Source: Chloroflexota bacterium (GTDB taxonomy: Bacteria; Chloroflexota; Anaerolineae; UBA4142). From it: 39,862 bases of DNA. Shown here one piece after another: positions 101 through 39,695 of this stretch. The DNA is taken from contig JACRBM010000080.1 of the NCBI GenBank assembly GCA_016219275.1, positions 1 to 39,862 on the forward strand. The letters run 5' to 3'. Position 1 is the first letter of the stretch. The number at the start of each line of letters is the position of its first letter. Made by a program: the position numbers and the translations under genes. The notes beneath the pieces were generated by a model. That model was not told the DNA's origin. It did not search any database and saw only the letters and a list, made by a program, of their open reading frames with translations.

Positions 101-1686
101 GTATCAATCTCTGTTAGAGTTTAGTTTTCATTCTGACCAAAACCAATACGGCTGCGTAACAATTCTCTCACTGATGGTATCAATCTCTGTTAGAGTTTAG
201 TTTTCATTCTGACGCGACTTTAACAAACGAACAGTTCCGCCAGGCACGCGAATGGTATCAATCTCTGTTAGAGTTTAGTTTTCATTCTGACGAGAGGACA
301 TGAATGAGCGGTATCTAACAAAACTATTCGGCGCGTATCAATCTCTGTTAGAGTTTAGTTTTCATTCTGACAGGTACAAGAACTGCCGCAAGGACGGCAA
401 TCGGCCAGTATCAATCTCTGTTAGAGTTTAGTTTTCATTCTGACAACTCGACGTAGCATTGCGTCGTGAGTTGGATCGAATCATGTATCAATCTCTGTTA
501 GAGTTTAGTTTTCATTCTGACCAGTACTCGATCGTGAGTCTGAGGAGGATTGACATGTTTGTTGGTATCAATCTCTGTTAGAGTTTAGTTTTCATTCTGA
601 CTTGGATCGAATCATTCGACTGCGTTTCCGTTTTGGCTTGGCAGAGTATCAATCTCTGTTAGAGTTTAGTTTTCATTCTGACGAATCATTCGACTGCGTT
701 TCCGTTTTGGCTTGGCAGAGTATCAATCTCTGTTAGAGTTTAGTTTTCATTCTGACGATGAACTCGCGGCAACCGAAACCACCTGGTCCGATAAGTATCA
801 ATCTCTGTTAGAGTTTAGTTTTCATTCTGACTTGCAGAATATAACCTCGGCGAATTCCCTCATGGGGCGACAGTAAGGTATCAATCTCTGTTAGAGTTTA
901 GTTTTCATTCTGACTATCGCATTGAATAGCGCACCGCAAGACGCAAAGCAACGTATCAATCTCTGTTAGAGTTTAGTTTTCATTCTGACCTGACAATGCG
1001 AAAAGACATTCCACCATAGCCAACTCCGTATCAATCTCTGTTAGAGTTTAGTTTTCATTCTGACGACCGATGAAGTCCAACGTCGAGACACACCGGAAAC
1101 GATCCACGTATCAATCTCTGTTAGAGTTTAGTTTTCATTCTGACTTGATCGCGTTGATCGCGATCGCCGCGTGCTCGACATCTCCCAGGTATCAATCTCT
1201 GTTAGAGTTTAGTTTTCATTCTGACTGGCAGAGTCCGCAATCGCAGAGATTGAGAATGTGCGTATCAATCTCTGTTAGAGTTTAGTTTTCATTCTGACTG
1301 GGAGCGTTAAATTATCCCTTCTGACTGCAATGGTGGTCATCACGTATCAATCTCTGTTAGAGTTTAGTTTTCATTCTGACTGGAAAGAGTTGGGAAGTTG
1401 AGTACACATACAGAGATACCTTTGTATCAATCTCTGTTAGAGTTTAGTTTTCATTCTGACCAGCTCGACAATGAGGTGGCTATCTCATGGTTTCATGCGT
1501 ATCAATCTCTGTTAGAGTTTAGTTTTCATTCTGACGCGTAGCGATGCCTGCGGATGGTGCGAAGAGGTAAAACATGTATCAATCTCTGTTAGAGTTTAGT
1601 TTTCATTCTGACATGACGCAAGAACCGCAACGGTCGCGGACACAACCTCGTATCAATCTCTGTTAGAGTTTAGTTTTCATTCTGAC
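101..1686 (-). CRISPR. CRISPR array, 21 repeats of 37 bp and 20 spacers
   Basis: On the plus strand each repeat begins GTATCAATCT and ends TTCATTCTGAC. Repeats start at 101, 177, 255, 335, 408, 485, 565, 646, 720, 795, 878, 953, 1028, 1108, 1189, 1262, 1344, 1424, 1499, 1576 and 1650; all look identical. Spacers are 36-46 nt. Transcription is probably leftward: read on the minus strand, the repeat holds a small hairpin (CTCT-AAC-AGAG) followed by exactly eight bases, ATTGATAC, which resembles the common 5' handle ATTGAAAC left by Cas6-type cleavage. That places the leader between 1687 and 1957, next to cas2, and the newest spacers near 1650. Spacers 5, 7 and 8 share sequence, and spacer 8 is a suffix of spacer 7. 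The array lies directly downstream of a type III cas operon on the same strand. Confidence 0.98.
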
Positions 1687-1957
1687 AGTCGCATTCTCCC
1701 AGCGAGTGGGAGACAGAACGCAATTTGCCCGCTCCCCAGCCCTGTCAGTGGGGCAAAAACCCCATCCCGGCACATCGGCGCCACTTTGCGAGAATCGGCA
1801 ACTCGTACCCACCACGCTTGGATTCTCGCAAATCATCCGCGCTTGCGCGTCAAAATGAATCGGTTTGCGTCAAAAAATCTCATTTTTCAATCACATTTCA
1901 CCCCCCTTTGCGAGAATCGCCCCAAGCGCTCTACCCCCCACCGATTCTCGCAAAACC
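1687..1957 (-). promoter_or_regulatory. CRISPR leader with twin perfect palindromes
   Basis: This non-coding stretch separates cas2 from the array. It holds two long inverted repeats built from the same arm, TTTGCGAGAATC(G): arms 1785-1796/1821-1832 (12 bp, 24-nt loop) and 1907-1919/1942-1954 (13 bp, 22-nt loop). Nearer the array are two smaller hairpins, 1695-1701/1707-1713 and 1749-1753/1760-1764. Between the large palindromes is an AT-rich tract in which GCGTCAAAA occurs twice. Position and base composition fit a leader. The palindromes could be binding sites for an integration factor, or the one just after the cas2 stop could shield the transcript; no T-run follows it, so a classic terminator is unlikely. 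Confidence 0.65.
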
Positions 1958-2242
1958 CTACACCACAATGACCTGCACTTCTTTCACCACTTGCACGCCG
2001 CTGGTCGTCTCAATTTTGCTCCGACACGTTTCGCACAAAAAATAATAGCGCACCTGGTCCAGCCGGGGCTTGATCACGCGCCGCACCGCGCGTTCCATCC
2101 GCGCAAAATCCTTTTCCACCAGCAAACACTCGAACACGCTATATTGTACCGGCGTCCCAAAATCAAGCAGCCGCTTGTGCAAACGCGTGCGCCGCTTGTC
2201 ATCCGAAATATCGTACGCGACAACGATAAATTTTTTGGTCAT
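1958..2242 (-). CDS. cas2: CRISPR-associated endoribonuclease Cas2
   Basis: Cas2 is the small dimeric partner that bridges two Cas1 dimers in the spacer integration complex. The 94-residue product has the typical start, MTKKFIVVAYDISDD, with the conserved Asp at residue 11 after the first beta strand, and the usual RRTRLHKRLL helix. I chose the ATG at 2242 because AAGGA lies about six bases upstream and the N-terminus matches the family. A longer reading frame from a GTG at 2296, overlapping the cas1 stop, would add 18 residues unlike Cas2. The CxxC in YYFLCETC near residue 67 is seen in some Cas2 proteins. It is the last cas gene before the leader and is probably co-transcribed with cas1. 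Confidence 0.95.
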   Translation of the reverse strand: MTKKFIVVAYDISDDKRRTRLHKRLLDFGTPVQYSVFECLLVEKDFARMERAVRRVIKPRLDQVRYYFLCETCRSKIETTSGVQVVKEVQVIVV

Positions 2243-2292
2243 CGTGTCCTTCAGACCTGAAAGAGTTTCGCGCCAGCGCCTTCCCGGTCTTG

Positions 2293-3291
2293 TCACCGCG
2301 CGCGAAACGGAATATACGCCGGCAACTCGCCCTCGATCACCTTGCGCAAAAGCCGCGCCTGCACCTCAAAACACTTTTGGTACGTCAACCGCCGGCGATA
2401 GTGCGGATGCAGAACCTCGGTTTGAATGCGCGCCGTGTAATAACGCAAATACTTTTTCAAGCCGCGCTCGCTCAAATACACCCCGCCATCGTCGCCAGCG
2501 TGAAAATCTTTTTGCTCCAAAACACGCTTGTTGATCAACATCAGCGCCACCAAATCGGCAATGACGCCGCGAAACTCTTCCACCAGATCGAGCGCGAGCG
2601 CGGGACGCCCGTACGCGTCCGCGTGAAAAAAACCGGCATACGGATCCAACCCGACAATTTCCAACGCCGCAAAAATGTTTTCGCCAAGCAACGTATAACC
2701 CAGACTCAAGAGCGCGTTCACCGGATCGGGCGGCGGTCGCCGGGCGCGCTTTTCAAACGTCCAATCGCCGCGCAGAACCGCGCGCAACGCGCCAAAGTAT
2801 GCCTTGGAACCCGCGCCCTCATTGCCGCGCAGTTCCGCCAGATCGTTCGCGCGCGCCGCCGCGCGTAGGTGCGGAATCAACGCGTCCGCCGCCGTCCGCA
2901 AACCCTCCACACCGTGATCGCGCCCCCAGCGTTGCGCCAGCGTCCGATAGTTCGCCAGCTTGCCCTCCACCACCGCGCGGCTCACTTGCAACGAGAATGC
3001 CGCATCCTTCATCTTGGCATACTGCGTCTGTCGCAATGCGATGTTGAGCGGCGTCGCGCCGATCAACCGTCCGCGCAGTTTACCTTGCGGCGTCAGGAAA
3101 ACCAGTTCGATGCCCTGATCGAGCAAAAACGCGATCGCCGGCGTCGTCACACCCACATTGCCGATCAACACGACCGACGATACATTGATCGCCGGCACCG
3201 CGATGATCGTGGCATCCTCTTTCGTGACGACCAACTTGTGATATTCTTTTTCGACGCGCGCGCCCTGCTCGGTTACATACAACGTTGCCAT
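2293..3291 (-). CDS. cas1: CRISPR-associated endonuclease/integrase Cas1
   Basis: Cas1 is the metal-dependent integrase that inserts new spacers at the leader-proximal repeat. The 332-residue protein has an N-terminal beta domain (to about residue 75) and an alpha-helical catalytic domain. The three metal ligands are visible: Glu158 in RGNEGAGSKAYF, His223 in GFFHADAYGRP and Glu238 in LDLVEEFRG. I place the start at the ATG at 3291 (MATLYVTEQG); a TTG six bases upstream is also in frame, and neither has a strong Shine-Dalgarno sequence. Here Cas1 is not fused to the reverse transcriptase, which is the separate gene upstream; 134 bp containing heptamer repeats separate them. Length and motifs indicate an intact enzyme. 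Confidence 0.97.
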   Translation of the reverse strand: MATLYVTEQGARVEKEYHKLVVTKEDATIIAVPAINVSSVVLIGNVGVTTPAIAFLLDQGIELVFLTPQGKLRGRLIGATPLNIALRQTQYAKMKDAAFSLQVSRAVVEGKLANYRTLAQRWGRDHGVEGLRTAADALIPHLRAAARANDLAELRGNEGAGSKAYFGALRAVLRGDWTFEKRARRPPPDPVNALLSLGYTLLGENIFAALEIVGLDPYAGFFHADAYGRPALALDLVEEFRGVIADLVALMLINKRVLEQKDFHAGDDGGVYLSERGLKKYLRYYTARIQTEVLHPHYRRRLTYQKCFEVQARLLRKVIEGELPAYIPFRAR

Positions 3292-3425
3292 ACGCAAGTC
3301 AGACGGATGAACGCTTCGCGTGAAGGATGAAAAACTGAATAGATTTTTCTGCGTCCCTGCTACACCGAGTTCCCGCGAGTTCCTCGTTGTTCTTCATCCT
3401 TCCGCTCTCATCCTTCATCCTTTCC
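3292..3425. repeat. Heptamer repeats between RT gene and cas1
   Basis: The 134-bp gap contains repeated 7-mers CATCCTT (three copies, with a divergent unit CCGCTCT between, about 3396-3421) and an opposite-strand copy AAGGATG near 3321. The same seven-base architecture, with other words, recurs elsewhere in the window. It separates the reverse transcriptase and cas1 genes, which are otherwise in the same orientation. Confidence 0.6.
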
Positions 3426-4337
3426 TCAATACCATTCCGGCGGCAGAAAATCCCATGTCGTTGGTCGCGTTTTGGCGTGCACGCGCTTGCCCTGTTTGAG
3501 GTACGCGAACGAGTCGCGATAGAAATGCACACCAAGATAATCAAACCCTTCGTCGAACGAAACCACGCGTGTCTTGGCGGGTGACAACTTTAAGCGCAAA
3601 TAACCCAACGCCCACGCCGCAAATCGCCGCGCCTCTTCCATCTCCGCGCGCGTCTCACCCAGGATGATAAAATCATCGGCGTACCGCACCAAGCGCAACC
3701 CCATGCGCGTCAACGCCAGGTCAAACCGATGCAAGTACACGTTTGACAACAACGGCGAGACGACCATCCCCAGCGGCGTGCCGACCGCCTGGTCGCGCGC
3801 GCGCCGCCCGACCTTGAGCCACAGTTCGATCAGTGCGATGATCCGCGCATCGTCCACATCTTCGCGCAAAAAATCGAGCAACAAGGTGTGATCGAGCGAT
3901 TCAAAAAACTGTTCAATGTCGCCATCGAGAACCCAACGGAATCCGTCATCGCGCGCGCGCAACACCGCATCCAGCGCGCCCTGGGTGGAACGCCCCGGAC
4001 GATAACCGAACGCACAGTCCAAAAATTGGGCGTCGAGTTTTTCTTCGAGCACGTTCAATACCGCGCGTTGCAGAATCCGATCGCGCACCGTGCAGATGCT
4101 GATCGTGCGTGTGCCACCGCTCGGCTTGCGGATTTGGAACTGGCGCAAACGCTGCGGCTTGTACGTGTTCGCGCGCACGCTTGCGCGCAATTCGACCAAG
4201 TGCGTTTCCCACTCACGCGCAAAACGCCGAATGCTGATCTCGTCTACGCCCGGCGCGCCCTTGTTCTGCGCGATGCGATTGTATGCCGCGCGCAAATTGG
4301 CGAGCGCCAGCGCGCGAGTGAGGAGGCGGGTGGGCAT
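3426..4337 (-). CDS. CRISPR-associated reverse transcriptase (group II intron-like)
   Basis: A 303-residue RNA-directed DNA polymerase of the group II intron/CRISPR-RT lineage. Visible motifs: the RT0-1 region LRAAYNRIAQNKGAPGVDEI (residues 15-34), FQIRKPSGGTRTI near 67-79, the motif A aspartate in LDGDIEQFF (138-144), GTPLGMVVSPLLSNVYLHRFD (187-206), the catalytic YADD at 219-222, and the FDYLGVHF end of the palm (265-272). There is no maturase X domain, no HNH nuclease and no intron RNA around it, so it is not a mobile group II intron. It sits just upstream of cas1. RTs linked to type III cas1 genes can allow spacer acquisition from RNA; that role is inferred here. The ATG at 4337 has no clear Shine-Dalgarno sequence, so translation may depend on the upstream gene. 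Confidence 0.93.
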   Translation of the reverse strand: MPTRLLTRALALANLRAAYNRIAQNKGAPGVDEISIRRFAREWETHLVELRASVRANTYKPQRLRQFQIRKPSGGTRTISICTVRDRILQRAVLNVLEEKLDAQFLDCAFGYRPGRSTQGALDAVLRARDDGFRWVLDGDIEQFFESLDHTLLLDFLREDVDDARIIALIELWLKVGRRARDQAVGTPLGMVVSPLLSNVYLHRFDLALTRMGLRLVRYADDFIILGETRAEMEEARRFAAWALGYLRLKLSPAKTRVVSFDEGFDYLGVHFYRDSFAYLKQGKRVHAKTRPTTWDFLPPEWY

Positions 4338-4346
4338 AGGAGCACA

Positions 4347-4463
4347 CTCAAACCCACTTGTCTTCTTTCAATGTGACCTTGATGCACGCTCGAAGCGGGC
4401 ATTGCTTGCACCGGCTCTTGTCAGCTCAAACCCACTTGTCTTCTTTCAATGTGACCTTGATGC
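4347..4463. repeat. 39-bp exact direct duplication of the Cas7 gene end
   Basis: The sequence 4425-4463, which includes the last codons and stop of the Cas7-like gene, recurs exactly at 4347-4385. The 39 bp between the copies (4386-4424) are unrelated. The second copy is non-coding and lies in the gap before the reverse transcriptase. It may be a relic of a duplicated or deleted second Cas7-type gene, or simple slippage. Confidence 0.9.
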
Positions 4464-5211
4464 TAACATCGCCAAAGCCCTTGGAGATTTGCCCACCCAT
4501 CCGTTTCACGTCTTCTAAACGTTCGACCACAAACTCTTTGATGAGATCCGTTTGACTCTTGGCATTTCCCCTGAGCCATTCATCCGCATATCCTCTACCT
4601 TGTAGTGGACGCGGTTTACCCAATTCCCAACCGCGAATTGTGTCCGAGAGCAAAATACGCATCTCGCCTTCAAACACCGACCCTTGCGGGATGCCCTGCA
4701 ACGTGCGATTCGCGGCGTGCGCGACCGTATCCGTTCCACGGTCGCGGCGATTCTGATAAATTTCTTCGATCTCGGTACCGCCCGTCAATCCCAGGTATGG
4801 CGTCTGCACAAACCCGATTAACCCCATCGTCCCGTAAAGGTAGCAAGTAGGACAAACCGCGACTTGCCCTTCGCGACGACCGCTACTGCGATACTCGCAA
4901 TTCGCGCCCTTGTATTTTTGTCCACGTGTCAAGGCGCGTTCGTCTTCCGAAAGGTTGTTGAAACTGGAAGGGATGCACGGTTTCATCGGTGGCTGGTTGC
5001 CATAGTTCAAGATCAAATATTCTTCGAGTTTTGCGCGCGCCGCGCCTTTGAGACTGGAACCCTGCACCACCGGTTTTCCGCCCAGCGTGGTGAACGGACC
5101 ATGCACATCGGACATCGGGTCTTTAAACGCGCCGATGTGCAACGGTTGTTTGGTCGTCAAGCGTACCGTGTAAATCGCCCAATGTTGATTGCGTTTAATC
5201 TCGGTTGGCAT
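4426..5211 (-). CDS. Cas7-group RAMP protein (Csm3-like backbone subunit)
   Basis: A 261-residue RAMP superfamily protein, probably the repeated backbone subunit that coats the crRNA and cuts target RNA. It shows LHIGAFKDPMSD near residues 24-35, VVQGSSLKGAARAKLE (48-63) corresponding to the Csm3 motif PGSSLKGxLR, a zinc-type element with Cys105 and CPTCYLYG (120-127), and a glycine-rich C-terminal loop, GGQISKGFGDV (239-249). Asp31 or Asp35 lies where Csm3 proteins carry the catalytic Asp (Asp33); which one is equivalent needs an alignment. It starts at the ATG directly after the stop of the preceding small gene, with GGAG upstream, so it is translationally coupled. It is the only Cas7-type gene in the locus, whereas III-A to III-D systems normally carry two or more. 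Confidence 0.88.
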   Translation of the reverse strand: MPTEIKRNQHWAIYTVRLTTKQPLHIGAFKDPMSDVHGPFTTLGGKPVVQGSSLKGAARAKLEEYLILNYGNQPPMKPCIPSSFNNLSEDERALTRGQKYKGANCEYRSSGRREGQVAVCPTCYLYGTMGLIGFVQTPYLGLTGGTEIEEIYQNRRDRGTDTVAHAANRTLQGIPQGSVFEGEMRILLSDTIRGWELGKPRPLQGRGYADEWLRGNAKSQTDLIKEFVVERLEDVKRMGGQISKGFGDVSIKVTLKEDKWV

Positions 5212-5583
5212 TTAGCTCTCCTTTGTGCGCCCATAAAAATCGCGTAGGGCATTCAGTTTTTTCAAAATAAAACCGCCGTGCGCGCGCCGCAAATGTTCGC
5301 ACTCGAGTACGCCGATAATTTCAACCAAGTAATTCAAATCGTCGCGGCGATTCGCGTACGTGCTGTCTTCACGCTTGCCGACAACAAACGCTTCAGCAAG
5401 CGTTGGTCCATCGCGTTCAAAAACCGTCGCGACGTCATCCAACAAACCCGTCACCTCAAGTTGCGGACGATCTCGTCGCACCTGCATTTTAGACACATAC
5501 ATCACAATCTCGTCCATCGCGCGTTTAGCACGAACTTCAAGTGGGTCCATCGCGCGTTTAGCACACTCTTCAAGTGGGTCCAT
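5212..5583 (-). CDS. Small Cas11-like (Csm2/Cmr5-type) subunit, tentative
   Basis: A 123-residue, apparently all-helical, charged protein between two RAMP genes, the usual place of the small subunit (Csm2/Cmr5, Cas11) that lines the inner belly of type III complexes. I do not recognise a family motif, so the call rests on size, predicted helicity and position. The start at 5583 is supported by a strong AGGAGGTG seven bases upstream. The N-terminus is an internal tandem duplication: MDPLEECAKRA, MDPLEVRAKRA, then MDEIVM, encoded by a 33-bp direct repeat that also repeats the start codon, giving three in-frame ATGs (5583, 5550, 5517). The conserved core probably begins at the third Met. It abuts the Cas7-like gene (TAA immediately followed by ATG). 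Confidence 0.6.
   Translation of the reverse strand: MDPLEECAKRAMDPLEVRAKRAMDEIVMYVSKMQVRRDRPQLEVTGLLDDVATVFERDGPTLAEAFVVGKREDSTYANRRDDLNYLVEIIGVLECEHLRRAHGGFILKKLNALRDFYGRTKES
5518..5583 (-). repeat. 33-bp tandem repeat at the 5' end of the Cas11-like gene
   Basis: Two 33-bp units, differing at only a few bases, encode MDPLE(E/V)(C/R)AKRA twice in frame. Each unit starts with an ATG, so the copy number can change the length of the N-terminus without breaking the frame. Confidence 0.85.
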
Positions 5584-5584
5584 C

Positions 5585-6199
5585 TTACACCTCCTGTGTT
5601 TCTTTCAGGAACGGTAGCGGTGCGCTCACCCAGCTATCTTCAAAGAGCGCGCGGACGTACTCGCCGCCTTCGTGCGCCGCATCCGGTTGAAAGAGATAAC
5701 CAAAGATTGGCATTTTGACTTGGATCTGAAACAACTCCAACACCCGCGAATTTTCCGGTACGCGCACCGCCAGCCGACCTTCAACGGGCTTGAACTCTAA
5801 CGCCGGCTTGGTGCGTTTCAACCGGCATTGTCCAAATCCCAGTGAACGATACGCGCCCATTTCCAGCATCAAATCGGCTTCGAGTTCTGCCGCGTCGCCA
5901 TCGGTTGGAATATAGACACGCGCGTGAACATCGCTAAGGAATTCAATCTCTAATGGGAGTTTGGCTGTGTCGCTGAACACATCGCGCAACCCGCGCATCT
6001 TGGTCTCGCGCCGAAATTTCTGAATGCGCCCAACCGCGTGAATGTCCGACTCGCGTCCTTCGCCACGTCGGCGCGCGCGGAGCGCGCCCGTAATTTGCGA
6101 GTACGGAATCGAACTGTCCAAACTTGCGCGGTAGGTTCCCTTTTTGGTGCGCTCACCCAAACATAAAGCGTCGCAAGTTAATTCATATTCCCAAAACAT
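5585..6199 (-). CDS. Cas5-group RAMP protein (Csm4-like)
   Basis: A 204-residue RAMP protein, likely the Cas5/Csm4-type subunit that caps the crRNA 5' handle and contacts Cas10. The N-terminal strand MFWEYELTCDALCL is followed by GTYRASLDSSIPYSQITGAL, which resembles the Ser-x-IxGxLR loop of RAMP proteins, and a glycine-rich loop, GAYRSLGFGQCRLKR, lies near residues 116-130. It is shorter than most Csm4 or Csx10 proteins. I start it at the ATG at 6199 because the Cas10 stop codon (6201-6203) is one base upstream, so the genes are coupled. A longer frame from 6292 would overlap Cas10 and adds no RAMP-like sequence. It ends one base before the next start codon. Confidence 0.75.
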   Translation of the reverse strand: MFWEYELTCDALCLGERTKKGTYRASLDSSIPYSQITGALRARRRGEGRESDIHAVGRIQKFRRETKMRGLRDVFSDTAKLPLEIEFLSDVHARVYIPTDGDAAELEADLMLEMGAYRSLGFGQCRLKRTKPALEFKPVEGRLAVRVPENSRVLELFQIQVKMPIFGYLFQPDAAHEGGEYVRALFEDSWVSAPLPFLKETQEV

Positions 6200-6200
6200 A

Positions 6201-8480
6201 TCACTCCAATCCGAACGTAGTGAGATGCTCGTACGCCAACAGATCGCGCATTCGCAAAACGCCCTGCTCGATCGCGTCGGCGAAAGAATCAATCACCCGC
6301 GGCGATAGCTTACGCCGGTCGTGTCGGTCACTCAACAATGTCAAGGTTGCCAATGCCGTACTGGCGCTCCGCTGTTCGATTTGCGCGAGTTTGTGCAGGT
6401 ACGTTCGTCCGCGTTTAACTTCACGGTCACGATCATTCAAGTCCAATCCAACCAACAAGTCAAACGCGCGCAAACCAATTTCCATTGGACGCTTACCGAC
6501 CACGCGCACGCTTATCGGTTGCGGCGGCTTGCTAATGTACCGCCAATGTTGGAAGAACGGGTACTTGGGATCTGAGATGCTAATTCCCAGACGAATGGGC
6601 GGCATCGTATCCTTTTCAAACCATACTGGGAAACGCGACCGGCACAGCACGCGAAATGATTCCAGCAGATGGTACAACTGCGCCCCGTCGCGTAACTGAA
6701 TCAAGCGCAAGTCGGACATACCCAAGTCGCGTAATTCAGGTTTACCATCACGTGAGCGCGGCGCAATTTCATTTAGCCGCGCGTTCCAATCCGTCAAAAA
6801 AGCGCGATAGTCTTCGACGAAATCGCGCGCGACTGCCGCAATGCGAACATCCTTCAAACATTCTTCCCGGATCTTGACATCTACGATATTCGCTTCAACG
6901 TAATCGGCGTACAGGTTGAGCAAGGCACTTTCGAGTGCGTGTGCTTCCAGATTCACCTTGACCCATAGCGCCAGATCCCAATCGTCAATGCTTCCCTGGT
7001 AAAGACCACCCGTGCGAATCTCTTCACACACATCGCAAACATAATCAATGGTATTTGCCATCGGACGCTCTTTTGCCTGGCGCATCTGGCAAATCTCACA
7101 GATGGGCGGTGGAAAAGCAGAGCACTCGGCAATATCTTTTGGATACAAAGAGATGTGTGCATATTCCCCAGCAAATTGTTCAACTGAATCAGAACTTGAT
7201 TGAGTCGCAACCCGCTGAACCAAGGCTGTTTCGGTGTTCTGCAGGTTAACCAGTTTCTTCTTGGCGTCACTCCATTCTCGATCTGCCACAGAAATTCGCT
7301 TGCCATGCTCGACACGATCCATTGCTTGAGCAGATTGCCGGCGTAATGTCAAACGCGCCTCATCTAATCGCTTGACCGCTTGCTCCTGGTCGGAAATCTG
7401 ACTCTGCACCTGCACCAATTCGGGTTTCAACCCAACTTGAAAACGCCGAGTCAAACCCTGTTGCACCGCCGTCGGTAGCCAAACACCAACTTGTTTCAAT
7501 GGCGCGGTTTTGATCTCGATCTCCAGATATAAATGCTCATTCAATACCGGCTCGAACGCGTCGCGCAGTTTCTTGTTCAAACCAGCGGGCTCGGCGTCCT
7601 CTGCAACGTATGGAAGAACAAGCCACACCGAATCGCTCGTTTGAAACAACAGTTCATCGCCAAATTGATTTTCAAGTTGTTCCGAAACTTTCGCCAATTT
7701 ACCAAACAAGTTCAAGTCCGCCGGGCGAACCGGGTTCTGGTGAAACTTGACCGTCGCGCGAAGCGAGTGGAGCGACCATCGTTGCTCTGCGTCCTGTGTG
7801 GTTTGAACCGACTCGCCGCCCAAACTCAACCACAACGGCTCATGCTTTACGGTAATATTTTTCTTCAGAATCCGGTAGAACTGACCAACCAATTGCGAAT
7901 GCGACAATAGTGATGTAACATTACGCGGAATGGTCTCGTCCTCCGGCTTGACCTCCATATTCGGACGAAATGTTTCCCAAAGTTTCTTTGCATCATTCGA
8001 CTGAATCAGATTCAAGGCATCTGTAAGCGAATTAGCATCCTTGATTGGCTCCGGATCACCATGCATTAATTGAGCAAATCGCGGATTCCACAAACGATGG
8101 ACAGTCATCCTCTCTGCGCCACCAATCCTTTTCCCCAAAGCGCGTCCCGCTGTCGTCGCAAGGTGATCACTCAGGATGATTAAAAAAATCGCCTTCCGAT
8201 CTTCTTCCGTTATTTTGGGATTAGGACAAGGCAATGATAGATTCCGTTCCCAGCCATCCGACTTGGCATGATGATGTGTGATAGCCCACCAAACAAGGTT
8301 TTCAGGCGGAGACTTGAATCCTAATGTCCCCCAATCCAAGTTACCAAACTGCGGTTTGTCAGCACCATGCACATAGACCTTGGCACCATCTGTGGATTTG
8401 ACGGGGGGAGTCGCAGTAGTTAATTCTGATGTTGCCAACTTCATCAAGTCATGCAATTCCGCAATCAAATCTGTTGCCAC
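6201..8480 (-). CDS. Divergent Cas10-like large subunit, HD intact, GGDD absent
   Basis: A 759-residue Cas10 relative, the large subunit of a type III effector. Domains seen: an N-terminal HD region with His10-Asp11 (ELHDLMKL), a His69-71 cluster (AITHHHAKSDG) and Asp105 (IILSDHLATT); a palm-1 region ending with LLFQTSDSVWLVLPYVAED (277-295), matching the Csm1 pattern; a strongly helical, coiled-coil-like insert at about 352-428; a zinc ribbon with Cys461, Cys464, Cys482 and Cys485; and a palm-2 region (about 490-660) whose end, IRLGISISDPKYPFFQHW, fits Csm1. GGDD does not occur anywhere in the protein; the expected site reads DLRLIQLRDGAQLYHLLESF. So cyclic oligoadenylate synthesis is predicted lost while HD nuclease activity is kept. 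Starts at a GTG with GAGGTG eight bases upstream. First gene of the cas operon. Confidence 0.85.
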   Translation of the reverse strand: MATDLIAELHDLMKLATSELTTATPPVKSTDGAKVYVHGADKPQFGNLDWGTLGFKSPPENLVWWAITHHHAKSDGWERNLSLPCPNPKITEEDRKAIFLIILSDHLATTAGRALGKRIGGAERMTVHRLWNPRFAQLMHGDPEPIKDANSLTDALNLIQSNDAKKLWETFRPNMEVKPEDETIPRNVTSLLSHSQLVGQFYRILKKNITVKHEPLWLSLGGESVQTTQDAEQRWSLHSLRATVKFHQNPVRPADLNLFGKLAKVSEQLENQFGDELLFQTSDSVWLVLPYVAEDAEPAGLNKKLRDAFEPVLNEHLYLEIEIKTAPLKQVGVWLPTAVQQGLTRRFQVGLKPELVQVQSQISDQEQAVKRLDEARLTLRRQSAQAMDRVEHGKRISVADREWSDAKKKLVNLQNTETALVQRVATQSSSDSVEQFAGEYAHISLYPKDIAECSAFPPPICEICQMRQAKERPMANTIDYVCDVCEEIRTGGLYQGSIDDWDLALWVKVNLEAHALESALLNLYADYVEANIVDVKIREECLKDVRIAAVARDFVEDYRAFLTDWNARLNEIAPRSRDGKPELRDLGMSDLRLIQLRDGAQLYHLLESFRVLCRSRFPVWFEKDTMPPIRLGISISDPKYPFFQHWRYISKPPQPISVRVVGKRPMEIGLRAFDLLVGLDLNDRDREVKRGRTYLHKLAQIEQRSASTALATLTLLSDRHDRRKLSPRVIDSFADAIEQGVLRMRDLLAYEHLTTFGLE

Positions 8481-36435: not shown

Positions 36436-38001
36436 TCAGTCTCCAGCACTACGCCGCCGCGCGCGTACACTGCCGGCGATCACCACTCCACCGATAACGA
36501 TAATTCCCAGCAGAAACAAACGGGGCAACCCAGTGTGATCGTTGTACGCCGCGAACGAATTTACAGCCACCGCCGTTGGCAAACCATACTCATACGCGCC
36601 GATATCACAAGTCCCAACGCGCGATTGCCCGCGCTGATCGGTTGAGGGGCATCCATTGTTGTCGCCTGCGTTGATCGCCGGGCTACCGGATAAAAGCGCG
36701 TGTGTTTGCGTCGCGCCGCCGTTGTTCGCGAGCGAACCAAGGAGCGGATTAGTCGTTGGCTTGTCGCCGGTCGCGCTGAGATTGCAGGAGCTATCCGTAC
36801 TGATGTTGTGTCCCAGCGAAATGATTCCCAAGCCCATATCGCTCAGGCAATTCGGTGTTGCGCCGTTCGATGCGATAATCGTGTTTTTGAGTCGCACGAC
36901 ACTATCCACGGTGTAACTGTTGTAAATACCTGCCGCAATACCATTCAGGTTCGTCGCTTGATTGCCATTTATCGTTACATTCGTCAGAGTCATACTTCCA
37001 ACATTGTGAATCCCCGCGACTTCTTGCGCGGTATTACCGCTGATCGTTACATTCGTGATTGTCATTAAACCACCAGAAGTAATTCCCCCACCACGTTGGT
37101 TCGCCTGGTTATTTGCAATTAGGGCATTTGTAAGTGTCACGAAACCTGTACTGAATAAACCACCCGCCGCGTCTGCGGTATTGGTTAGTATATTGCTGTT
37201 TAGGATGGTTAAATTAGCACTATTACCAACACCACCACCGACCGATGCCACATTCTCGCTAATCGTGCTGTTCTCCAAAACCAACGTTCCTTGGTTGTCA
37301 AAGCCACCTCCAACATATCCGTTATTGGAAACGATGTGTACATTTTCCAGGTAAGCAAAGCCGGAATTATTCAAGCCCGCTCCTTCACTCCCCGAAGTGT
37401 TGTTGTTCAGATTCACATTCGACATGTACAGAGTACCATAATTGCGGATACCACCTCCACGATTAATCACCGTGTTGCTGGTAACCGTTGAATTAGTGAT
37501 CGTTAGAACCCCCGCATTGTTAATCCCTCCGCCTTCTCCCGCTTGATAAGGAGAACCGTTGCGAATGGTCACATTCGAGATGGTGACACGGGCAGGTGCC
37601 CAAATTTCAAAGACGCGATCAAGCATGTTCCCATCAATAATTGTGTTGCTCGCTCCAGCGCCATTGAGGGTCATATCAGAAGTAATATCAAAATCTCCAA
37701 AAGTTGGAAAATTCCCTCCGCCACTTTCGGCACGTGTCAGGAGATACACTCCAGCCGGTAGATTAATCGAGTTCGCTCCTCCCAACGCGTTCGCTTGCAT
37801 CAACGCCGCGCGCAACGCGCAGGTGTTTGTTGTTGTGTGGCATACACCGTCCGTCAAATTGTCGTCAATCAAATCAGTCGTGTCGTTGACCGTGAATGTG
37901 ACCGCCATCGGTTTGGCATGTACGGGTACGCCGAGCGCAAAGAGCAAGACAGCATTAACCAATAATGTTGTCAGAACAAAATACCTAGTCCCACTTTTCA
38001 T
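36436..38001 (-). CDS. CSLREA-domain beta-helix surface protein, copy A
   Basis: A 521-residue secreted protein. A signal peptide (MKSGTRYFVLTTLLVNAVLL, cleavage likely after VHA) precedes a CSLREA-type region: FTVNDTTDLIDDNLTDG, two Cys, and CALRAALMQANA. The middle (about 100-340) is made of repeats such as LTITNSTVTSNTVINRGGG, the parallel beta-helix pattern. The C-terminus GLPRLFLLGIIVIGGVVIAG plus RARRR is a membrane anchor with basic stop-transfer residues. It lies 50 bp after copy B and shares its first 90 and last 180 residues almost exactly, while the middle is unrelated in detail. AGGAG precedes the ATG at 38001. Confidence 0.88.
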   Translation of the reverse strand: MKSGTRYFVLTTLLVNAVLLFALGVPVHAKPMAVTFTVNDTTDLIDDNLTDGVCHTTTNTCALRAALMQANALGGANSINLPAGVYLLTRAESGGGNFPTFGDFDITSDMTLNGAGASNTIIDGNMLDRVFEIWAPARVTISNVTIRNGSPYQAGEGGGINNAGVLTITNSTVTSNTVINRGGGIRNYGTLYMSNVNLNNNTSGSEGAGLNNSGFAYLENVHIVSNNGYVGGGFDNQGTLVLENSTISENVASVGGGVGNSANLTILNSNILTNTADAAGGLFSTGFVTLTNALIANNQANQRGGGITSGGLMTITNVTISGNTAQEVAGIHNVGSMTLTNVTINGNQATNLNGIAAGIYNSYTVDSVVRLKNTIIASNGATPNCLSDMGLGIISLGHNISTDSSCNLSATGDKPTTNPLLGSLANNGGATQTHALLSGSPAINAGDNNGCPSTDQRGQSRVGTCDIGAYEYGLPTAVAVNSFAAYNDHTGLPRLFLLGIIVIGGVVIAGSVRARRRSAGD

Positions 38002-38051: not shown

Positions 38052-39629
38052 TCAGTTCCTCACGTCACGCCGCCGCGCGCGTACGCTACCGGCGATCACC
38101 ACTCCACCGATAACGATAATTCCCAGCAGAAACAAACGGGGCAACCCAGTGTGGTCGTTGTACGCCGCGAACGAATTTACAGCCACCGCCGTTGGCAAAC
38201 CATACTCATACGCGCCGATATCACAAGTCCCAACTCGCGATTGCCCGCGCTGATCGGTTGAGGGGCATCCATTGTTGTCACCCGTGTTGATCGCCGGGCT
38301 ACCGGATAAAAGCGCGTGTGTTTGCGTCGCGCCGCCGTTGTTCGCGAGCGAACCAAGAAGTGGATTAGTCGTTGGCTTGTCGCCCGTCGCATTGAGATTG
38401 CAGGAGCTATCCGTACTGATGTTGTGTCCCAGCGAAATGATTCCCAAGCCCATATCGCTCAGGCAATTTGGGGTTGTGCCGTTCGATGCGATAATCGTGT
38501 TTTTGAGTCGCACGACACTGTCCACGTTGTAACTATTGTAGACGCCTACGGCAATCCCATTTGGGTTTGTCGCTTGATTGCCGTTGATCGTTACGTTCGT
38601 AAGTGTGATATTTCCAGCATTTTCAATTCCCGCGCCTGCTTGCGCGGTGTTACCGCTGATCGTTACATTCGTCAGTGAAGCGTTTCCGGAAATTGAAATC
38701 AGACCAAAACCTGTGGTATTGCTACTAACGGTACTGGCGGTCAATGTCAATGTGCTACCTCGACTACTAAAAATGGCGGCAGAATAATTCAAAGAACTGT
38801 TACCAACGATAGAACTGTTGGTCACCGTTAGAATCCCTCCATTGGCAATTCCGCCACTATGGAATGGGGCAGAGTTACTACTGACCGTAACATTAGTCAG
38901 CTCTGCTTGCCCAGAGATTGCCAAGCCACCACCCAAGCCAGTCGTGGTATCTGTCACCACGTTTTGTTTGATGAGAGTATTCGTTAGACTCAGACTACCG
39001 TTACTCATAATCCCGCCACCCATCGTCCAACTTGTATTGTTGATAATTTGGCTATCTGACACGACAAGTTCGCCTTCACTCCAGATACCACCACCGGCAT
39101 CTGCAGAATTGTTATCAAGGTTAACATTCGAAAGGATCACACTACCCGAATTGTAAACACCACCACCGTACGCTGAGAAATCGTATTTCTTTCCATTTCG
39201 AATCGTTAAACCACTGATAGCCACTCGGTAGTTAGAAGAAATACGGAAAACCCGATTAGTTTGATTTCCATCTATCACGGTATTCACTACACCAGAACCC
39301 ATGATGGTTAGATTGCTACTAATGTCGAGATCGCCTACATTGTCGAGTCCATTCCCGGCAATCGTGAGCACAAACATACCCGCCGGCAAATTGATCGTGT
39401 TCGTCCCGCCCAACGCGTTCGCTTGCATCACCGCCGCGCGCAGCGTACACGTGTTTGTCGTCGTGTGGCATACACCGTCCGTCAAATTGTCGTCAATCAA
39501 ATCAGTCGTGTCGTTGACCGTGAATGTGACCACCATCGGTTTGGCATGTACGGGTACGCCGAGCGCAAAGAGCAGGACAGCATTAACCAATAATGTTGTC
39601 AGAACAAAATACCTAGTCTCACTTTTCAT
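38052..39629 (-). CDS. CSLREA-domain beta-helix surface protein, copy B
   Basis: A 525-residue paralogue of the next gene, with the same signal peptide (MKSETRYFVLTTLLVNAVLL), CSLREA region, beta-helix repeats (for example LTNVTVSSNSAPFHSGGIAN) and C-terminal anchor GLPRLFLLGIIVIGG. I start it at the ATG at 39629, with AGGAG upstream; an upstream in-frame start at 39695 would cover the promoter. Its last 180 residues differ from copy A at only about seven places outside the final four residues, and the DNA is nearly identical. The function is presumably adhesion or polysaccharide binding at the surface; no enzyme activity can be inferred. Confidence 0.88.
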   Translation of the reverse strand: MKSETRYFVLTTLLVNAVLLFALGVPVHAKPMVVTFTVNDTTDLIDDNLTDGVCHTTTNTCTLRAAVMQANALGGTNTINLPAGMFVLTIAGNGLDNVGDLDISSNLTIMGSGVVNTVIDGNQTNRVFRISSNYRVAISGLTIRNGKKYDFSAYGGGVYNSGSVILSNVNLDNNSADAGGGIWSEGELVVSDSQIINNTSWTMGGGIMSNGSLSLTNTLIKQNVVTDTTTGLGGGLAISGQAELTNVTVSSNSAPFHSGGIANGGILTVTNSSIVGNSSLNYSAAIFSSRGSTLTLTASTVSSNTTGFGLISISGNASLTNVTISGNTAQAGAGIENAGNITLTNVTINGNQATNPNGIAVGVYNSYNVDSVVRLKNTIIASNGTTPNCLSDMGLGIISLGHNISTDSSCNLNATGDKPTTNPLLGSLANNGGATQTHALLSGSPAINTGDNNGCPSTDQRGQSRVGTCDIGAYEYGLPTAVAVNSFAAYNDHTGLPRLFLLGIIVIGGVVIAGSVRARRRDVRN

Positions 39630-39666
39630 GGTTGATCTCCTCACAGACCTGGTTTTCAACATCCGA

Positions 39667-39695
39667 ATTATAACGCCTCTAACCTGGGTATGCAA
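39667..39695 (-). promoter_or_regulatory. Promoter of the CSLREA gene pair
   Basis: On the minus strand TTGCAT (39690-39695), 17 bp, TATAAT (39667-39672). The leader is about 35 nt and carries AGGAG before the ATG. Confidence 0.75.

What the first reader, a model, noticed from the sequence alone, without database searches (positions are those of the whole stretch)
445..1261. Four spacers sampled from one target; two share the same end but differ in length
Spacer 8 (683-719) is the 37-nt suffix of spacer 7 (602-645), so both crRNAs begin at the same base next to the handle and differ only at the 3' end. Spacer 5 (445-484) ends with the 14 nt that begin spacer 7 (TTGGATCGAATCAT). Spacer 15 (1226-1261) begins with the last 7 nt of spacer 7. 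Assembled, they give 99 nt with a 32-codon open frame on the plus strand. The reverse strand also has open frames, so direction is not proven by this alone. The target has been sampled repeatedly.
Basis: seen in the sequence. Interest (0 to 1): 0.75.

Follow-up and report, generated by a model that had tools for sequence, protein, structure and literature searches.

The report
CRISPR spacers resampling one unidentified transcript
A bacterial immune array next to a reverse transcriptase stored three or four overlapping snippets of one short stretch of an unidentified invader's gene; such resampling also occurs in related arrays with and without the reverse transcriptase, so it is real but fairly ordinary.

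Summary
Window 101-1686 is an array of 21 identical 37-nt repeats and 20 spacers. Spacer 8 is the 37-nt suffix of spacer 7. Spacers 5 and 7 overlap by 14 nt. Spacers 7 and 15 overlap by 7 nt, probable but not certain (P about 0.004 for that join; about 0.02 over all pairs).

Next to it lie cas2, cas1, a stand-alone reverse transcriptase (RT) and a type III-F effector. A conserved leader between cas2 and the array puts crRNAs on the minus strand, so plus is the target (mRNA) sense; a coding model and a Shine-Dalgarno/ATG count agree.

No protospacer was found in the host genome, 395 other genomes of its class, phages, plasmids, viral contigs or genome contigs.

Resampling is not special to RT loci: 4 of 29 RT arrays and 5 of 24 RT-less arrays hold overlapping spacers, all same-strand. 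The shared end of 7/8 is unique in the survey but expected in about 3% of overlapping pairs. Every checkable end is fully templated, so the untemplated tails of Marinomonas-type RNA capture are not seen.

Verdict: repeated acquisition from one target; a new member of a known kind.

The parts
101..1686 (-). CRISPR array, 21 identical 37-nt repeats and 20 spacers (36-46 nt); crRNA strand is minus
   Evidence: orientation from repeat 3' end ATTGATAC and leader conservation
445..484 (.). spacer 5; its last 14 nt equal the first 14 nt of spacer 7
602..645 (.). spacer 7, 44 nt
683..719 (.). spacer 8, 37 nt, exact suffix of spacer 7 (same handle-side end of the crRNA)
1226..1261 (.). spacer 15; first 7 nt equal last 7 nt of spacer 7 (probable overlap)
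1687..1957 (-). leader region between cas2 and the array, conserved in a relative (L047) up to the array edge
1958..2296 (-). cas2 (ORF as listed; true start probably at 2239)
   Evidence: Pfam PF09827 1.4e-21
2293..3297 (-). cas1
   Evidence: Pfam PF01867 1.4e-90
3426..4337 (-). stand-alone CRISPR-associated reverse transcriptase with intact YADD motif
   Evidence: PF00078 1.8e-31; PADLOC RT 1.1e-87; YADD
4426..5211 (-). cas7 of type III-F
   Evidence: PADLOC Cas7_IIIf 1.3e-50
5212..5583 (-). cas11 of type III-F
   Evidence: PADLOC Cas11f 1.2e-8
5585..6292 (-). cas5 of type III-F
   Evidence: PADLOC Cas5_IIIf 5.7e-42
6201..8480 (-). cas10 with N-terminal HD motif and no GGDD motif
   Evidence: PADLOC Cas10a|Cas10f 2.9e-71; motif scan

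Best explanation
This is the array of a type III-F CRISPR-Cas system with its own RT-Cas1-Cas2 adaptation module. Over time the module inserted several fragments of one roughly 100-nt stretch of a protein-coding gene, probably of an unsequenced mobile element, all in the orientation that makes the crRNA antisense to the mRNA. Inferred order: 5, then 7 and 8, then 15, since 15 is nearest the leader. Spacers whose crRNA can pair with the transcript are the useful ones for a type III effector, so the common strand is expected from selection alone. Shown: the overlaps, the gene content, the leader position, the sense bias. Inferred: the invader, the order of capture, independent capture of 8, and whether the substrate was RNA or DNA.
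For: Exact overlaps. Adaptation and III-F effector genes. Leader on the cas2 side. Target-strand coding score: 14 of 20 window spacers, and +2.8 nats for the 99-nt contig. SD-ATG strings lie on the target-sense strand in 35 spacers versus 13 on the crRNA strand in RT arrays. Similar sliding overlaps occur in other arrays: L057 9/13, L079 11/12, L086 8/9, and controls L115, L116, L124, L148, L151. All 11 exact end-overlaps of 11 nt or more are same-strand. Strand bias from selection in an RT-less type III system is reported in PMC7515739.
Against: No protospacer found anywhere searched, so the target is a reconstruction. Spacer 8 next to spacer 7 with one identical end could come from array rearrangement. 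The spacer 15 join rests on 7 nt.
Confidence: 0.75

Rival explanations
1. Spacer 8 was not acquired from the invader: the repeat-spacer-7 unit was duplicated in tandem by recombination and the copy lost 7 nt at its leader-distal junction. Only two or three independent captures then remain.
For: 7 and 8 are neighbours; they are the only nested non-identical pair in 53 arrays. Identical spacers from array rearrangement are common in the survey, 25 pairs, some of them neighbours, for example L124 79/80/81 and L143 33/34.
Against: The loss would have to start exactly at the repeat boundary, with only 1 nt of microhomology (sequence). Overlapping neighbours with both ends different exist (L079 11/12, L086 8/9), so neighbour captures need no duplication. 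A shared end is expected in about 3% of overlapping pairs.
Confidence: 0.22
2. The shared end records reverse transcription: cDNA of the invader mRNA began at one fixed site, giving two prespacers with the same crRNA-side end and different far ends.
For: RT with intact YADD beside cas1. CRISPR RTs start DNA synthesis de novo on RNA (PMC10415136). The shared end is the one that would be the cDNA 5' end in this orientation.
Against: One case only; none of the other 4 overlaps at RT loci shares an end. All checkable ends are fully templated, whereas RT-Cas1 spacers taken from RNA often carry two or more untemplated nt (PMC11014452). No A-rich composition at spacer ends.
Confidence: 0.08
3. Spacer 15 does not belong to the same target; its 7-nt match is chance.
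For: 7 nt only; about 0.02 expected among all ordered pairs (380 x 4^-7).
Against: P about 0.004 for a join to the 5-7-8 contig ends; the plus frame continues open across the join.
Confidence: 0.12
4. Assembly artefact: the contig merges arrays of co-occurring strains, so neighbour relations and the 7/8 pair are not one cell's array.
For: Draft assembly in 107 contigs; the window is a whole contig with the array about 100 nt from its end.
Against: 21 repeats are identical and the spacing is regular; a collapsed repeat would shorten, not invent, a nested spacer.
Confidence: 0.05

Closest known systems
Type III-F CRISPR-Cas
   Same: Cas10 with HD and no GGDD, single Cas7, Cas5 and Cas11 of the III-F models; matches the description that III-F generally has HD but lacks cyclase motifs (PMC11229360)
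   Different: Has its own cas1, cas2, RT and array, whereas most III-F loci lack arrays, with known exceptions (PMC12669027)
RT-CRISPR clade 9 (Chloroflexi, RT separate from Cas1; PMC5541045)
   Same: Stand-alone RT directly upstream of cas1; RT homologues occur in 66 of 396 sampled genomes of the same class
   Different: Clade placement not tested by a tree; that paper had no complete operon for the clade
Marinomonas mediterranea RT-Cas1 RNA spacer acquisition (PMC11014452)
   Same: RT coupled to Cas1-Cas2 in a type III locus
   Different: RT not fused; checkable spacer ends carry no untemplated tails
Thermus thermophilus type III adaptation without RT (PMC7515739)
   Same: Spacers antisense to transcripts, explained there by selection
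   Different: No RT there

Membership tests
Type III-F CRISPR-Cas | Cas10, Cas7, Cas5 and Cas11 of III-F type | tested here: met
Type III-F CRISPR-Cas | HD present and GGDD cyclase motif absent in Cas10 | tested here: met
   HD at residue 10; no GGDD
RT-linked CRISPR adaptation module | RT with intact YADD next to cas1 and cas2 | tested here: met
RT-linked CRISPR adaptation module | spacers acquired from RNA, dependent on RT | not testable with these tools
   needs acquisition experiments
Marinomonas-type RNA spacer capture | two or more untemplated nt at spacer-repeat junctions | tested here: not met
   all ends testable from exact overlaps in RT arrays are templated; only a borderline 11-nt case (L080 10/11) shows a 3-nt discordance. 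Few ends, so modest power
RT-CRISPR clade 9 of Toro et al. 2017 | phylogenetic placement of the RT | not tested
   no reference tree built; the host phylum is inferred only from the resemblance to the stand-alone RTs described in the paper

The most novel reading that the evidence does not exclude
A stand-alone RT feeding a III-F array copies invader mRNA from preferred start sites near an existing target, so that new spacers cluster around an old one and sometimes share an exact end (an RNA-level analogue of primed adaptation).
Probability: 0.06. Interest if true: 0.65.

Novelty: new member of a known kind. Interest (0 to 1): 0.27.

Why it matters
The overlaps give a 99-nt reconstruction of an unknown element's gene and a way to check spacer ends for untemplated nucleotides without knowing the target. 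That test can be run on any array and bears on whether RT-linked systems took their natural spacers from RNA, an open question because RT-linked spacers rarely match known sequences (PMC5513706).

Tried and rejected
Self-target in the host genome: only short chance matches. Phages and plasmids: no significant match; the 20-nt Microbacterium phage hit to spacer 15 has E 0.9. Eight viral-contig scans with degenerate patterns for spacers 5, 7/8, 15, 18, 2, 9 and 4: the few hits (L106-L112, L175, L176) have unrelated flanking sequence. Genome contigs: two Lachnospiraceae hits, unrelated protein. Order and class genomes: only short host matches. Pfam and PHROGs gave nothing for the 32-aa peptide. 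Idea that resampling is a mark of RT loci: per pair 5/3836 versus 6/30278 (P 0.005; P 0.06 without the window), but by array 4/29 versus 5/24, not different; array lengths differ between the sets, so not supported. RNA-tail signature: not seen. Second type III array of the same genome: 10 spacers, none overlapping.

Full report
Observation. The array at 101-1686 has 21 identical 37-nt repeats and 20 spacers of 36-46 nt. The reported coordinates and overlaps are exact. Only spacers 5, 7, 8 and 15 overlap. The 14-nt and 37-nt overlaps cannot be chance; the 7-nt one between 7 and 15 is probable (P 0.004 for a join to the contig ends; about 0.02 over all ordered pairs).

System. To the right of the array, all on the minus strand, lie cas2, cas1, a stand-alone RT with YADD, and Cas7, Cas11, Cas5 and Cas10 that match PADLOC III-F models. 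Cas10 has an N-terminal HD and no GGDD, as described for III-F (PMC11229360). Most III-F loci lack arrays, with exceptions (PMC12669027). No Cas6 model was matched by the window proteins scanned with Pfam and PADLOC; two Cas6 genes lie elsewhere in the genome, one of them beside a separate Cmr-like type III locus with its own array and a different repeat.

Orientation. The closest relative (G098, RT 84% identical) has a contig that breaks at the array edge; its sequence aligns with window 1688 onward up to cas2, so the leader is on the cas2 side. In minus orientation the repeat ends in ATTGATAC, like the ATTGAAAC ends of related arrays. Spacers near 1650 are the newest (inference from leader polarity).

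Direction of the target. A three-phase coding model trained on genes of these loci calls the strand of a 40-nt gene fragment correctly 66% of the time. It assigns the target strand as coding for 14 of 20 window spacers, 64% of 398 spacers at RT loci and 56% of 664 at RT-less loci; the 99-nt contig scores +2.8 nats for the plus strand. Shine-Dalgarno plus start-codon strings are on the target-sense strand in 35 against 13 spacers at RT loci and 56 against 23 in controls; purine-rich composition may add to this. So crRNAs are mostly antisense to mRNA. This is what a type III effector needs, and PMC7515739 shows that selection alone can produce it. It is not evidence for RNA capture.

Is resampling unusual? 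I compared 29 arrays beside CRISPR RTs (402 spacers) with 24 arrays beside RT-less Cas1 (821 spacers) from the same class. Exact end-overlaps of 11 nt or more: window 5/7 and 7/8, L057 9/13, L079 11/12, L086 8/9 at RT loci; six in controls. All eleven are same-strand; one further control pair, L151 43/54, overlaps on opposite strands when two discordant end bases are allowed. By array, 4 of 29 versus 5 of 24 have an overlap; by pair the RT loci are richer (P 0.005, or 0.06 without the window), but the control arrays are much longer, so pair counts are not a fair basis. Resampling is therefore ordinary here and needs no RT.

The shared end. 7/8 is the only nested pair. If ends are placed at random, about 3% of overlapping pairs share an end, and at least one such case among 11 overlaps is expected with probability 0.29. 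It is a mild oddity. A tandem duplication of the unit with loss of 7 nt is the main rival; the loss would have to begin exactly at the repeat boundary with 1 nt of microhomology.

A test of RNA capture. In RT-Cas1 systems shown to take spacers from RNA, new spacers with noncoded junction nucleotides mostly have two or more of them (PMC11014452). Overlapping spacers allow this to be checked without the target. The right end of 5 and the left ends of 7 and 8 are fully templated, as are the testable ends in L057, L079 and L086, even when up to 6 untemplated nt are allowed in the search. Spacer ends show no A-rich composition. Only L080 10/11 (11 nt, 3-nt discordance) could be a tailed case, near chance level. 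This argues modestly against Marinomonas-type capture for these spacers and leaves DNA capture, or RNA capture with trimming, open.

Target search. No protospacer was found in the host genome, the 395 other class genomes sampled, phages, plasmids, viral contigs or genome contigs. This is in line with the reported rarity of matches for RT-linked spacers (PMC5513706).

Conclusion. The array holds repeated captures of one unidentified coding region by a III-F system with an RT-containing adaptation module.

Noticed in passing
window 1958-8480: A III-F effector locus with its own RT, Cas1, Cas2 and array; most III-F loci are described as lacking arrays, so the combination may be uncommon.
   Followed up: partly
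window spacers, left-end position 3: 14 of 20 spacers have G at the third base from the left (leader-distal) end (Bonferroni P about 0.005); L048 (50%) and L054 (40%) lean the same way. Possibly an acquisition preference inside the spacer.
   Followed up: partly
window 4347-4385 and 4425-4463: 39-nt perfect direct repeat: one copy covers the 3' end of cas7, the other lies in the gap before the RT gene.
   Followed up: no
window 5512-5577: Two 33-nt in-frame tandem units at the start of the Cas11 ORF.
   Followed up: no
L080 first array, spacers 10/11: Neighbouring spacers match by 11 nt with 3 discordant bases at the end of spacer 10; either chance or an untemplated tail.
   Followed up: partly
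L124 and L143: RT-less arrays with blocks of duplicated identical spacers, evidence of frequent array rearrangement.
   Followed up: no
L187 (same genome, contig C96): A second type III locus, Cmr-like with a Cas10 bearing GGDD and a Cas6, with an 11-repeat array and a different repeat.
   Followed up: partly
window 36436-38001 and 38052-39695: Two tandem, very similar large secreted-looking proteins with nearly identical N-terminal signal region.
   Followed up: no
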